Shown in pieces: positions 30,441 through 34,223 of a stretch of DNA of 64,000 bases. The DNA lies in contig NZ_CAMFLA010000007.1 of assembly GCF_945957525.1 (NCBI RefSeq), forward strand, positions 62,001-126,000, written 5' to 3'. The position numbers were made by a program, and so were the translations under genes. How positions within the stretch are numbered: position 1 is the stretch's first letter; every line of letters begins with the position of its first letter. A model generated the notes under the pieces. It was not told the DNA's origin and ran no database searches. It worked only from the letters and a program-made list of their open reading frames with translations. This DNA is from an uncultured Aquitalea sp. (GTDB lineage: Bacteria > Pseudomonadota > Gammaproteobacteria > Burkholderiales > Chromobacteriaceae).

Positions 30441-30455
30441 GAGGAGGGTTTTGCC

Positions 30456-30770
30456 ATGAGCGATACACCCCGCAATGCACCGCGCCCCCAGTGGCCATCC
30501 ATCCCGTCCCTGCCCCTCGATTCCCACAGCCTGGCCGACCCGCGCTTTGCCCTGTTCCTGCAGCAGCTCGGCTTGGGCGAAAGCCCGACGCCAGAAAGCC
30601 GGCAGGCCCTCCTGCTGATCCACCACGCCTGCCACATCCTCGATGCGCGGCTGGAGAAAGTGCGCTACCTCATGAACGACAGCGCACAACTGATGAACAA
30701 GCTGCTGGCCATGCTGGACAGCAAAGAAGTGGCAGGGCTGGAGCAATACGACCGCTACATCCTGCTCTAG
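30456..30770 (+). CDS. Small protein of unknown function, ending at an amber codon
   Basis: 104 residues with a strong GAGGAGGG site eight bases before the ATG. No signal peptide or membrane segment; a Pro-rich N terminus then helical, coiled-coil-like sequence (HHACHILDARLEKVRYLMNDSAQLMNKLLAML). The last residues are YDRYILL before TAG; the same frame continues with 16 further plausible codons (HLQGGLDQARNELQLA) to a TAA at 30819-30821. So the gene may be truncated by a point mutation, or read through. Preceded by the structured leader and followed by terminator copy A. Confidence 0.65.
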   Translation: MSDTPRNAPRPQWPSIPSLPLDSHSLADPRFALFLQQLGLGESPTPESRQALLLIHHACHILDARLEKVRYLMNDSAQLMNKLLAMLDSKEVAGLEQYDRYILL

Positions 30771-30842
30771 CACCTGCAGGGCGGACTGGATCAAGCCCGC
30801 AACGAGCTGCAGCTGGCTTAAGCCCAGCGCGCGCCCCCATGT

Positions 30843-30875
30843 AAAAGCCCCCGACCATGCGGCGCGGGGGCTTTT
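30843..30875 (+). terminator. Terminator after the small gene (copy A)
   Basis: Arms AAAAGCCCCCG / CGGGGGCTTTT around an 11-base loop. It forms most of the left 53-bp repeat. Confidence 0.85.
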
Positions 30876-30897
30876 GGTCGGCGGAAGGTTGGCCGAA
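30845..30897 (+). repeat. Left 53-bp direct repeat bounding the restriction-modification cassette
   Basis: Matches 33547-33599 at 52 of 53 positions (A versus G at the tenth base). Contains the terminator hairpin and the GTTGGCCGAA motif. Confidence 0.9.
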
Positions 30898-30898
30898 G
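30888..30898 (-). repeat. Dispersed 11-mer at the cassette's left edge
   Basis: Exact GTTGGCCGAAG on the plus strand; preceded by GGAA, giving the extended CTTCGGCCAACCTTCC on the other strand. Confidence 0.85.
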
Positions 30899-30925
30899 AG
30901 TTGTGGTCGAGCATGGTCGCTGACT

Positions 30926-31327
30926 CTATTGTAAAAAGTTCTCCAACTTCGCCCTCAGCGCGTCTTCGTCCTTGATCATGCACTCCCAGAGGATAAGAAC
31001 CGACCAGCCCGCCTCACGCAAAGCAAACTGGGTTCGCGCGTCTCTTTCCACATTGCTCTTAATTTTGGCCATCCAATATTCTGTTCTGGTTTTCGGTATG
31101 CGGCAGCGGCCGCAATCATGCCCATGCCAAAAACACCCGTGTACAAAAATCACCTTGGCTTTCCGACGAAACACTAGGTCCGGCTTGCCGGGCAGCTTGG
31201 CTACATGCAAGCGGTAGCGAAAGCCCATGGAGAAAACTAAGCGCCGGACCTTCATCTCCGGCCCGGTATTCTTGCTGCGAACCCGAGACATGAGCTTGCT
31301 TCGCTGCTGCCGCGTCAACGTGTCCAT
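30926..31327 (-). CDS. vsr: Very-short-patch repair endonuclease
   Basis: 133 residues, the normal length for Vsr. Residue matches to E. coli Vsr, one number lower: catalytic Asp50 (GKPDLVF), His63 and His68 (FVHGCFWHGH), and zinc ligands Cys65, His70, Cys72 and Cys116. It nicks beside T:G mismatches made by deamination of 5-methylcytosine, thus protecting the cassette's own methylated sites. Divergent from the methylase, with a shared 121-bp promoter region carrying a TGTGATACTAT extended -10 sequence (about 31375-31385). Confidence 0.93.
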   Translation of the reverse strand: MDTLTRQQRSKLMSRVRSKNTGPEMKVRRLVFSMGFRYRLHVAKLPGKPDLVFRRKAKVIFVHGCFWHGHDCGRCRIPKTRTEYWMAKIKSNVERDARTQFALREAGWSVLILWECMIKDEDALRAKLENFLQ

Positions 31328-31448
31328 GGCGTCCCTCTGGCGACGGCTTCGCCTCGGGCGGAGCCTTTACGGATGTGTGATACTATACGCGCCGGCCTTC
31401 CAAGAGGGCCGAGACATTGGCAGAGGCTTGATTATTAAGGAGGGTTGA

Positions 31449-32606
31449 ATGGACTACGTGAATGAGCCGGATACGGCGCTCTATTCGCCGAGTGTCGCCT
31501 CCCCCATGGCCAGCCCCGTCGGAACAAAACGCCGCAAACCCGCCTTTCATGAGTTCTTCGCCGGCAGCGGACTGGTTTCCCACGCCTTGGCTCCCTATTT
31601 CGATGTAGTTTGGGCCAACGACATCAGCGCTAAGAAAGCCGCTGTTTACACGGCGAATCATGCTCCGGGCAAATTCCAATTGGGATCCATCACCGATGTC
31701 TACGGCGGGATGCTGCCCAGCGCGACATTGTCTTGGGCGAGCTTTCCTTGCCAGGATCTTTCCCTTGCAGGACAAACGGCCGGCATTGACGCGGAGCGCA
31801 GCGGCTTGGTTTGGCAATGGCTGCGCATTATTGACGAGGCCATCGAGCCGCCGCCGCTGCTAGTCGCTGAAAATGTGGTGGGCCTAGTGTCCGTCAAAGG
31901 CGGCGCGCATTACCGCGCGCTGCATGAAAAGCTTCGCCAGCGGGGTTATGCGGTGGGCGCGTTGATGCTGGACGCTGTCCGTTGGGTCCCGCAGTCGCGC
32001 CCTCGCATTTTCGTTGTGGCCTTTCATCAGGATTTCCCCATCCCGGCGGAGCTCACCGCCGCCGGACCAACTTGGGCTCATCCCGCAGCCGTCGTCAACG
32101 CCGCTCAAGGCATTTCCGACTGGGTGTGGTGGCGCTTGCCTGAACCCGAGCCGCGCAAAAAGGATCTCGCAGACATCATCGAATGGGACGCTCCTTGCGA
32201 TCCACCGGAAATCGCAGCGCGCAATATCGCGCTTATTCCCGATCATCACCGTCGCATGCTAGATGCCCTGGATACTTTCGCAGCGCCCGGCTACAAACGC
32301 ACGCGCGCCAACGGACAAACGCTAGAACTGCGCTTCGACGGCGTAGCCGGCTGCTTGCGAACCCCAAAAGGGGGCAGCAGCCGTCAGTTTTTAGTGCTCA
32401 AGCGCAATGGGACGCTGTCCACCCGATTGCTGACGGTAAGAGAAACCGCACGCTTGATGGGCGCTCCGGACTCTTTCCAATTGCCGGGCACTTACAACGA
32501 CGGCTATATGGCGATGGGCGACGCGGTCGCCGCTCCTGTGGCCGCGTATCTGGCAAAGCATCTTCTGTCCCCTCTCGCAAAGGCGCTGCATCGCGATGAC
32601 TCTTGA
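31449..32606 (+). CDS. DNA (cytosine-5-)-methyltransferase
   Basis: 385 residues with AAGGAGGG upstream. C5 motifs in order: I, FHEFFAGSGLVSHAL (33-47); IV, SFPCQDLS with catalytic Cys101; VI, ENV at 141-143; VIII, PQSRPRIFVV at 181-190. The target-recognition region is about 230-320 and cannot be read for specificity. The C-terminal motif X (LPGTYNDGYMAMGDAVAAPVAAYLAKHL) is present. The stop overlaps the following gene by 11 bases, so methylase and endonuclease are coupled, methylase first, the safe order. Most likely protects against the following endonuclease. Confidence 0.93.
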   Translation: MDYVNEPDTALYSPSVASPMASPVGTKRRKPAFHEFFAGSGLVSHALAPYFDVVWANDISAKKAAVYTANHAPGKFQLGSITDVYGGMLPSATLSWASFPCQDLSLAGQTAGIDAERSGLVWQWLRIIDEAIEPPPLLVAENVVGLVSVKGGAHYRALHEKLRQRGYAVGALMLDAVRWVPQSRPRIFVVAFHQDFPIPAELTAAGPTWAHPAAVVNAAQGISDWVWWRLPEPEPRKKDLADIIEWDAPCDPPEIAARNIALIPDHHRRMLDALDTFAAPGYKRTRANGQTLELRFDGVAGCLRTPKGGSSRQFLVLKRNGTLSTRLLTVRETARLMGAPDSFQLPGTYNDGYMAMGDAVAAPVAAYLAKHLLSPLAKALHRDDS

Positions 32607-33522
32607 ACAAAGCCTGCGTCATTATCAAAAAGACAAGCGGCTAAAGTCCAAAGGCCAGTTGGCAACTATGTTGTACGTCTCCAGGAAGGCGAGAACGCTC
32701 GGCTTACCGCTTGATCCCTCTTTATTGCTAACGAGCAAGCAGGGGCAGATCAATGGCCTGAGCAAAAGAGCCGTGCAAGCCATTCTTGCGGAATACGGCG
32801 AAACGCGGGTGTTGGCCGAAGAATGCGGAAGAACCAGCCGCGGCAGCTTGGGCAACATGCAGGATTACGTCGCCTTTCTCAACGATATTCATGCGAAGGG
32901 TTTGGCCGATTTAAGCAAAATCGAAGCATGGTGGGTGGAGCGCATCCGCGACTTCTTCGCCGCTAAACCATTCAAACTGAAGTACGACACCAGCAAGTCT
33001 TTTCGCGGCATCATCCGCGATCTGCTGCAGCAAGCGGAAAAACGGCAAAAGGACAATCCCGGCACGATGTACGCCGGCGCGGTGCTTCAGCATCTGGTCG
33101 GGGCCAAACTTACGTTGGCCCTGCCGGAGACCAGCATCGCCATGAATGGTTTTTCCGTTGCGGACGCCGTTAGCGACCGCAGCGGCGATTTCGTCATTGA
33201 GGATGTTGTGGTGCATGTGACCACCGCGCCGAGCGAAGCCTTGATGCGCAAGTGCGCGGCAAACTTGCAAGCCGGCTTGCGCCCTTTAATCGTCACCACC
33301 TATCGCAGCGTGCCGGCGGCGGAGTCTTTGGCGGAAATTCAGGGTATTGCCGATCGGTTGGACGTACTGGACGCGGAGCAATTCATCGCCGCCAATATCT
33401 ATGAATTGAGCGGCTTTCAGGCAATGCGACGCAAACCTACGTTTGACAAACTAGCCGAGACTTACAACGCCATTGTGGACCGTTGCGAGACCGACGCCAG
33501 CTTGAAAATTGCCGTAGATTAA
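32596..33522 (+). CDS. Putative type II restriction endonuclease (DUF4928-like)
   Basis: 308 residues, starting within the methylase gene. Sequence looks like the DUF4928 family commonly placed beside C5 methylases. A possible PD-(D/E)XK-like strand pair is SGDFVIEDVVVHVTTAPSE (about residues 195-213), with the expected Asp and Glu but His where Lys is usual. N-terminal 100 residues may bind DNA. Function as cognate nuclease is inferred from position; a non-nuclease role cannot be excluded. One 11-mer copy at 32811. Confidence 0.7.
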   Translation: MTLEQSLRHYQKDKRLKSKGQLATMLYVSRKARTLGLPLDPSLLLTSKQGQINGLSKRAVQAILAEYGETRVLAEECGRTSRGSLGNMQDYVAFLNDIHAKGLADLSKIEAWWVERIRDFFAAKPFKLKYDTSKSFRGIIRDLLQQAEKRQKDNPGTMYAGAVLQHLVGAKLTLALPETSIAMNGFSVADAVSDRSGDFVIEDVVVHVTTAPSEALMRKCAANLQAGLRPLIVTTYRSVPAAESLAEIQGIADRLDVLDAEQFIAANIYELSGFQAMRRKPTFDKLAETYNAIVDRCETDASLKIAVD

Positions 33523-33546
33523 GCAGGTATAACTCCCTCATGGAAT

Positions 33547-33599
33547 AAGCCCCCGGCCATGCGGCGCGGGGGCTTTTGGTCGGCGGAAGGTTGGCCGAA
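33547..33599 (+). repeat. Right 53-bp direct repeat bounding the restriction-modification cassette
   Basis: Second copy of the terminator hairpin (arms 33547-33555 and 33567-33575, then TT) and the GTTGGCCGAA decamer. It ends six bases before the LysE stop and now serves as terminator for the restriction gene. Confidence 0.9.
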
Positions 33600-33605
33600 A
33601 CCCTC

Positions 33606-34223
33606 TTACGCCAGCCATTGCCACGCCAGGCTGCCCGAGGCCAGCCACATGAACACTGCCGCCGCGCGGTGCAAACGGCCCAGTTGCGCGGCAAAGCGCC
33701 GCATGACTGTCGGGTGACCGGCCGCCCACGCCACCAAACCATCCCATAGCAACACCGCCAGCAACATCCACGCCCCGCAGGCGGCCTGCCAAGCCAAGGC
33801 CATGCCGCGCGCGCAGAGCAAGCCAAACAAGGTGGCGTAAAACAAGGCGTTCTTGGGGTTGAGCGCGCCGGAGAGAAAGCCGGCCAGCCAGGCGTTGCGC
33901 TCATGGCTTGATGCAGCGGCACTGTCAGCCAATGAGGCCGGGGCCGCCGCGGCGCGCCAGAACGCCCAGCCTAGCCAGGCCAGATAGACGGCCCCCGACA
34001 CCAGCAGCCATCGGCTGAAACCCGCGTGTCTAGCCAGGCCCTGCAAGCCGGCCAGCGCCATGAGGATGTACACGCCGTTGGCCGCCGCAATGCCCAGCGC
34101 CGTGAGATATCCGCGCCGACGGCCGGCCGCCAGCGACTGTCGCACCAGCAGGAAGAAATCCGGGCCGGGACTCAACAGCGCAAGAAAATGCGCCCCAGCC
34201 ACCAACAAGAACAATTCAAGCAT
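33606..34223 (-). CDS. LysE/RhtB-family exporter
   Basis: 205 residues from the ATG at 34223, placed six bases after AAAGGA; an ATG six bases earlier is too close to the site. Six predicted TM helices. Family features: LALLSPGPDFFLLVRQSLAAGRRRGY near the N terminus and FLSGALNPKNALFYATLF. Members export amino acids such as threonine, homoserine or lysine. The AraC gene upstream on the same strand is a plausible regulator. In 34224-34459 there is no gene, only a TCGACACC direct repeat. Confidence 0.87.
   Translation of the reverse strand: MLELFLLVAGAHFLALLSPGPDFFLLVRQSLAAGRRRGYLTALGIAAANGVYILMALAGLQGLARHAGFSRWLLVSGAVYLAWLGWAFWRAAAAPASLADSAAASSHERNAWLAGFLSGALNPKNALFYATLFGLLCARGMALAWQAACGAWMLLAVLLWDGLVAWAAGHPTVMRRFAAQLGRLHRAAAVFMWLASGSLAWQWLA

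What the first reader, a model, noticed from the sequence alone, without database searches (positions are those of the whole stretch)
30845..33599. Restriction-modification cassette with vsr bounded by duplicated terminator-plus-motif repeats
A vsr, C5 methylase and restriction gene, lower in GC, sit between 53-bp direct repeats that differ at one base. Each repeat carries a terminator and the dispersed motif. No transposase or integrase is present. Collapsing the repeats restores a simple small gene - terminator - LysE order, which suggests a clean insertion by recombination at a natural terminator, possibly after DNA uptake through the same motif.
Basis: partly seen in the sequence, partly recalled or inferred. 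Interest (0 to 1): 0.75.

Follow-up and report, generated by a model that had tools for sequence, protein, structure and literature searches.

The report
Restriction cassette between duplicated terminator repeats
A foreign three-gene DNA-defence cassette has been inserted behind a small gene so that the gene's own transcription terminator, together with a short genome-wide motif resembling the DNA-uptake tags of Neisseria, is now present on both sides of it; the insertion style is already known, but the motif appears to be an undescribed uptake-tag-like signal.

Summary
Two 53-bp direct repeats (30845-30897, 33547-33599; one mismatch) bracket a compact type II restriction-modification cassette: vsr (-), C5-cytosine methylase (+), DUF4928 restriction-endonuclease-family gene (+). 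It is lower in GC (57% against 65%), with no transposase or integrase. In 464 kb of the genome this is the only non-tRNA direct repeat of 28 bp or more within 10 kb.

No strain with an empty site is held, and the flanking genes are not syntenic in the family genomes searched. An internal outgroup helps: a 72%-identical paralogue of the upstream small gene elsewhere in the genome has one homologous terminator-plus-motif at the same spacing, and the homology ends where repeat A ends. [quoted passage not shown]

The motif in each repeat, AGGTTGGCCGAA, occurs 417 times in the genome; its core is 35-50-fold over expectation in four family genomes. A sister genus has about 1,900-2,900 copies of a one-base variant, GTTGGCCGCA. 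This resembles Neisseria DNA-uptake-sequence dialects, but no report for this group was found in the papers I could search. That uptake or the motif drove this insertion is untested.

The parts
30453..30770 (+). small gene upstream; internal TAG at 30768-30770; the frame of its paralogue continues to TAA 30819-30821
   Evidence: ORF; 66% identical to a product at G000:C28; DNA alignment with the paralogue shows AAG there
30845..30897 (+). direct repeat A: terminator-like hairpin plus dispersed motif; resident copy of the small gene
30886..30897 (+). motif AGGTTGGCCGAA in repeat A
30926..31327 (-). vsr, very-short-patch-repair endonuclease
   Evidence: PF03852 7e-32, TIGR00632 2e-43; aligns with E. 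coli Vsr structures 1cw0/1vsr/1odg
31449..32606 (+). C5-cytosine DNA methyltransferase
   Evidence: PF00145 5e-43; FAGSGL, PCQ, ENV, QSRPR and GDAV motifs intact
32596..33522 (+). DUF4928 / REase_II restriction endonuclease candidate
   Evidence: PF16280 2e-60, PADLOC REase_II 2e-46; model's best PDB matches are restriction enzymes EcoT38I and MspJI
32811..32820 (+). 10-mer GTTGGCCGAA inside the endonuclease gene (codes V-L-A-E)
   Evidence: the V-L-A-E stretch is largely conserved in relatives, so it may be incidental
33547..33599 (+). direct repeat B: duplicate of A, now between the cassette and LysE
33588..33599 (+). motif AGGTTGGCCGAA in repeat B
33606..34223 (-). LysE-type exporter, right neighbour of the insertion
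   Evidence: PF01810 2e-23

Best explanation
A foreign, probably functional type II restriction-modification unit (C5 methylase plus DUF4928 endonuclease, with Vsr to repair T:G mismatches left by deaminated 5-methylcytosine) was inserted immediately behind the terminator-plus-motif of a resident small gene. The 53-bp (possibly about 65-bp) target was duplicated in the process, so each side of the cassette ends in a terminator and the cassette is insulated from its neighbours. SHOWN: gene content, repeat identity, uniqueness, deviant composition, absence of mobility genes, and single-copy terminator order in the paralogue. INFERRED: that A is the resident and B the copy; that the mechanism is the 'insertion with long target duplication' known for R-M systems, probably by recombination at the terminator during or after transformation; that the enzymes are active; that recombination between the 43 exactly identical base pairs could delete or amplify the cassette.
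For: 52/53 repeats at the cassette edges, unique in the genome. The internal paralogue with one terminator ends its homology at the right edge of A; repeats A and B resemble each other (98%) far more than either resembles the paralogue's terminator (83-85%). The cassette is absent from 60 other family genomes (nearest methylase match 35%; endonuclease in 3 of 398 other genomes drawn from the order, at about 51%), while relatives sit on small plasmids of Pseudomonas, Achromobacter, Burkholderia and Serratia and in Paenibacillus sedimenti with the same vsr(-) M(+) R(+) order at 63-65% protein identity. Low GC and GC3. Precedent: R-M systems inserting with long, variable target duplications of about 100 bp (PMC3874152; PMC3031569).
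Against: No empty-site strain could be examined. Six relatives of the cassette elsewhere show no flanking direct repeats of 24 bp or more, so duplication is not a property of the cassette itself. The left border of the duplication is uncertain. Terminators of similar hairpin sequence recur in the genome (C25, C28), so gene conversion between two pre-existing terminators is conceivable.
Confidence: 0.72

Rival explanations
1. Minimal-mobile-element-like exchange: the cassette plus both terminators came in as one linear fragment from another strain of the species by transformation and double crossover in the flanking genes; the duplication arose earlier in the donor lineage.
For: Transformable Neisseria keep such gene-cassette sites between conserved genes (PMC3898611). 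The genome carries a DUS-like motif at high density, including in both repeats.
Against: The defining evidence, different cassettes between the same conserved genes in different strains, could not be seen; the flanks are not conserved in other species. It shifts the origin of the duplication rather than explaining it.
Confidence: 0.15
2. Single-crossover (Campbell-type) integration of a circular molecule that carried the cassette and one copy of the terminator-motif.
For: Gives exactly one repeat on each side; relatives of the cassette are on small plasmids.
Against: No plasmid backbone genes between the repeats; the circle would have to carry a host-type terminator 98% identical to this one, which is otherwise unique in the genome.
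Confidence: 0.08
3. The two terminators are independent and were made alike by gene conversion, or are merely similar members of a terminator family; the cassette's age and mode of arrival are unrelated to them.
For: Similar hairpins with the same motif downstream recur at C28 and C25.
Against: Those are only 77-85% alike over the full length; identity here includes 24 bp past the hairpin that occur nowhere else.
Confidence: 0.05

Closest known systems
R-M systems inserted with long target duplication (Helicobacter and others; Nobusato 2000, Furuta 2010, as cited in PMC3874152 and PMC3031569)
   Same: Type II R-M unit, no mobility genes, long direct repeats of target DNA at both edges.
   Different: Duplication here is 53-65 bp rather than about 100 bp; the target is a terminator carrying a DUS-like motif; the empty site was not observed.
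DUF4928-type R-M modules on plasmids of Pseudomonas/Achromobacter/Burkholderia (NZ_LC155907, NZ_CP019671)
   Same: C5 methylase followed directly by a DUF4928 endonuclease; vsr present in the Burkholderia plasmid.
   Different: About 42% (M) and 50-53% (R) identity; vsr is divergent and upstream here, downstream and co-directional in the Burkholderia plasmid; this one is chromosomal, without plasmid genes.
Paenibacillus sedimenti R-M locus (NZ_JACVVD010000010)
   Same: Same gene order and orientation, vsr(-) M(+) R(+); 65% (M) and 63% (R) identity, the closest found.
   Different: Another phylum, GC 40%, no flanking direct repeats.
Minimal mobile elements and DUS-bearing terminators of Neisseria (PMC3898611, PMC3630211)
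   Same: Gene cassette next to a terminator carrying a short, very abundant motif.
   Different: The motif differs (GTTGGCCGAA against GCCGTCTGAA; T of the invariant CTG core replaced by C); close inverted motif pairs are not enriched here.

Membership tests
Type II restriction-modification system | C5-cytosine methyltransferase with catalytic motifs | tested here: met
   PF00145 5e-43; PCQ, ENV, QxRxR motifs present
Type II restriction-modification system | adjacent restriction endonuclease | tested here: met
   By homology only: PADLOC REase_II 2e-46; model (pLDDT 80.5) best matches EcoT38I at E 4.5e-5, then MspJI. TM-score only 0.44
Type II restriction-modification system | cleavage and protective methylation at one site | not testable with these tools
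   needs enzyme assay or methylome
Vsr mismatch endonuclease | homology and active-site region | tested here: met
   TIGR00632 above cut-off; aligned with 1cw0 over residues 5-124
Insertion with long target duplication | long direct repeats exactly at the edges of an R-M unit | tested here: met
Insertion with long target duplication | no transposase, integrase or IS at the ends | tested here: met
   ORFs between the repeats; no IS-like terminal inverted repeats seen
Insertion with long target duplication | relative with an empty site carrying one copy | tested here: inconclusive
   no syntenic relative held; paralogue with one copy is indirect support
Minimal mobile element | different cassettes between the same conserved genes in different strains | tested here: inconclusive
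   flanking genes not syntenic in the family genomes searched; no conspecific strain held
Composite transposon | IS copies at both ends | tested here: not met
   repeats are 53 bp, non-coding
DNA uptake sequence (Neisseria type) | one 10-12-mer in about a thousand or more copies, on both strands | tested here: met
   GTTGGCCGAA 164 in 464 kb, 4.0 expected; no strand bias; 12-mer 197 forward / 220 reverse genome-wide
DNA uptake sequence (Neisseria type) | lineage-specific dialects differing by single bases | tested here: met
   GTTGGCCGCA about 1,870-2,900 copies in all 13 g5 genomes, background elsewhere
DNA uptake sequence (Neisseria type) | CTG at positions +6 to +8 (PMC3630211) | tested here: not met
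   motif has CCG there; +10 A is met
DNA uptake sequence (Neisseria type) | inverted motif pairs at terminators | tested here: not met
   3 pairs within 60 bp in 464 kb, about 7.5 expected at random
DNA uptake sequence (Neisseria type) | ComP-type receptor | tested here: inconclusive
   PF16732 matches in all 61 family genomes and in none of 14 controls, including genomes that lack the motif
DNA uptake sequence (Neisseria type) | enhances transformation | not testable with these tools
   needs transformation assay

The most novel reading that the evidence does not exclude
The repeats are built around an undescribed DNA-uptake-sequence family of the Chromobacteriaceae-like group (GTTGGCCGAA, with GTTTGCCGAA and GTTGGCCGCA dialects), and uptake-tagged terminators behind genes act as landing sites where incoming R-M cassettes integrate with duplication of the tagged terminator, so that the acquired cassette is both insulated and tagged for onward transfer within the species.
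Probability: 0.2. Interest if true: 0.78.

Novelty: new member of a known kind. Interest (0 to 1): 0.5.

Why it matters
The insertion is a clean example of how restriction-modification systems spread without mobility genes, and the duplicated element suggests where they land in a genome that appears to be built for transformation. The by-product matters more: a DUS-like motif in genomes probably related to groups for which the 2013 survey (PMC3630211) reported no obvious uptake sequence. It occurs as lineage-specific one-base dialects, while some close relatives lack it. That gives a natural experiment for how uptake specificity arises, shifts and disappears.

Tried and rejected
Empty-site search with the small gene, LysE and the upstream flavoprotein: orthologues of the flavoprotein exist (68% in G016, 63% in G031) but none of the other window genes lies within the stretches fetched around them. 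Phage origin: no phage record matches the endonuclease. Cassette-borne direct repeats in relatives: none. Assembly artefact: rejected, because both repeats lie inside one 222-kb contig and are short. Chi/KOPS-type reading of the motif: not favoured, because there is no strand bias. Motif as paired terminator stem, as in Neisseria: not enriched. ComP presence as a discriminator: uninformative. Recognition site: no characterised close relative in the PDB; not inferred.

Full report
OBSERVATION. Between 30845 and 33599 the window holds two 53-bp direct repeats with one mismatch, vsr on the minus strand (30926-31327), a C5 methylase (31449-32606) and, overlapping it by 11 bp, a DUF4928 gene (32596-33522). 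PADLOC places the last among type II restriction enzymes. The DNA between the repeats is 57.4% GC against 64.6% outside. The repeat pair is far beyond chance: in 464 kb of this genome all other exact direct repeats of 28 bp or more within 10 kb are tRNA clusters, and genome-wide only these two places match the 29-nt right part of the repeat. Both copies fold into a strong hairpin on either strand, but with only four U after the stem, so the terminator assignment rests on hairpin strength and position between converging genes, not on the scan tool.

WHICH COPY IS ORIGINAL. The small gene to the left has a paralogue at G000:C28. The alignment runs from 30183 through the gene, its stop and the hairpin to the last base of the motif (72%), plus one matching G, and stops there, at the right edge of repeat A. 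In the paralogue a single terminator-motif follows the gene at the same spacing. A and B are 98% alike, whereas they are 83% and 85% like the paralogue's terminator. The simplest history is: small gene - terminator - motif - LysE, then insertion of the cassette directly after the motif with duplication of the terminator-motif. The one base that differs (30854) has the family base G in B and the derived A in A. Similarity possibly continues 12 bp to the left (about 2% by chance).

NO EMPTY SITE SEEN. The held genomes are one per species. Neither LysE nor the small gene has a syntenic counterpart in the relatives searched. The upstream flavoprotein has orthologues in other genera, but none of the other window genes is found near them.

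THE CASSETTE. The closest relative found is in Paenibacillus sedimenti, with identical gene order (M 65%, R 63%, Vsr 42%). Others are on small plasmids of Pseudomonas, Achromobacter, Burkholderia and Serratia (about 50-53% for R). No phage record matches. In the order, only 3 of 398 other sampled genomes carry the endonuclease, at about 51%. Methylase motifs are intact, and Vsr aligns with the E. coli enzyme. A model of the endonuclease (pLDDT 80.5, pTM 0.64) finds EcoT38I at E 4.5e-5 as the only PDB match below E 0.001, followed by MspJI. Invariant residues D198, D203, H207 and T209 sit on or next to the strands of a PD-(D/E)XK-like core; catalysis is inferred, not shown. The cassette edges carry no IS, integrase or plasmid genes, and relatives lack direct repeats, so the repeat belongs to the target, not to the cassette.

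MECHANISM. R-M systems are known to insert with long, variable target duplications (PMC3874152, PMC3031569); of the cited original work (Nobusato 2000, Furuta 2010), Furuta 2010 was looked up and is not held and Nobusato 2000 was not looked up, so both are known here only through these citations. I take that as the best class. The joining mechanism is not established here; homologous recombination at the terminator on one side and illegitimate joining on the other during transformation would do it, but this is inference.

THE MOTIF. AGGTTGGCCGAA occurs 417 times in this genome, 384-610 times in five other genomes of the family, and 0-5 times in the nine other genomes labelled as the same genus. 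In 464 kb the 10-mer core GTTGGCCGAA occurs 164 times against 4.0 expected; all one-base variants are rare (0-15) except GTTTGCCGAA (79). It has no strand bias and lies in genes and between them, with intergenic copies of the 12-mer mostly nearer to gene 3' ends (15 of 20). The family's genus g5 has GTTGGCCGCA instead, with about 1,870-2,900 copies in each of 13 genomes and equal on both strands, against background everywhere else. Copy number, both-strand distribution and one-base dialects are hallmarks of Neisseria DNA uptake sequences; the A-to-C change at position +9 is the same as the one described between kingDUS and king3DUS (PMC3630211). Against simple membership: the invariant CTG core is CCG here, and inverted pairs are not enriched. 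ComP-like pilins are present in all family members, with or without the motif. The 2013 survey found no obvious uptake sequence in Laribacter, Lutiella, Pseudogulbenkiania or Chromobacterium, and searches of the held library found no later report. The motif works, in sequence terms, like an uptake signal; function is untested.

VERDICT. Observation confirmed; insertion at a resident terminator with target duplication is well supported though not proven; the uptake step is plausible but untested. The cassette is a new member of a known kind. The DUS-like dialects are the more surprising by-product.

Noticed in passing
genome-wide; in the window e.g. 13691, 14927, 24130, 30886, 33588, 45748, 51733, 53857, 57730, 63888: AGGTTGGCCGAA / core GTTGGCCGAA is a DUS-like motif (417 12-mers in the genome; core 40-fold enriched) with a second form GTTTGCCGAA; related genera carry it at similar density, congeners lack it.
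   Followed up: partly
G084 and all 13 genomes of genus g5: A distinct dialect GTTGGCCGCA at about 1,870-2,900 copies per genome, 50-fold enriched in G084, with no GTTGGCCGAA in the 200-kb stretch examined.
   Followed up: partly
30453-30821: Small gene of unknown family (no Pfam/NCBIfam match) with an in-frame TAG at 30768 and an internal deletion relative to its paralogue at G000:C28; a third relative at G000:C25 also precedes the same hairpin type.
   Followed up: partly
G000:C28:2867, 5081, 6668 and G000:C25:36373, 36641: Small family of near-identical GC-rich hairpins (GCCCCCGG..CGGCGCGGGGGC), several followed by the motif, clustered in two short regions.
   Followed up: partly
G011 C1:100001-300000: Over-represented GGTTGCGGTTGCGG-type repeat (GCAACCGCAA etc., up to about 57-fold); not examined.
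   Followed up: no
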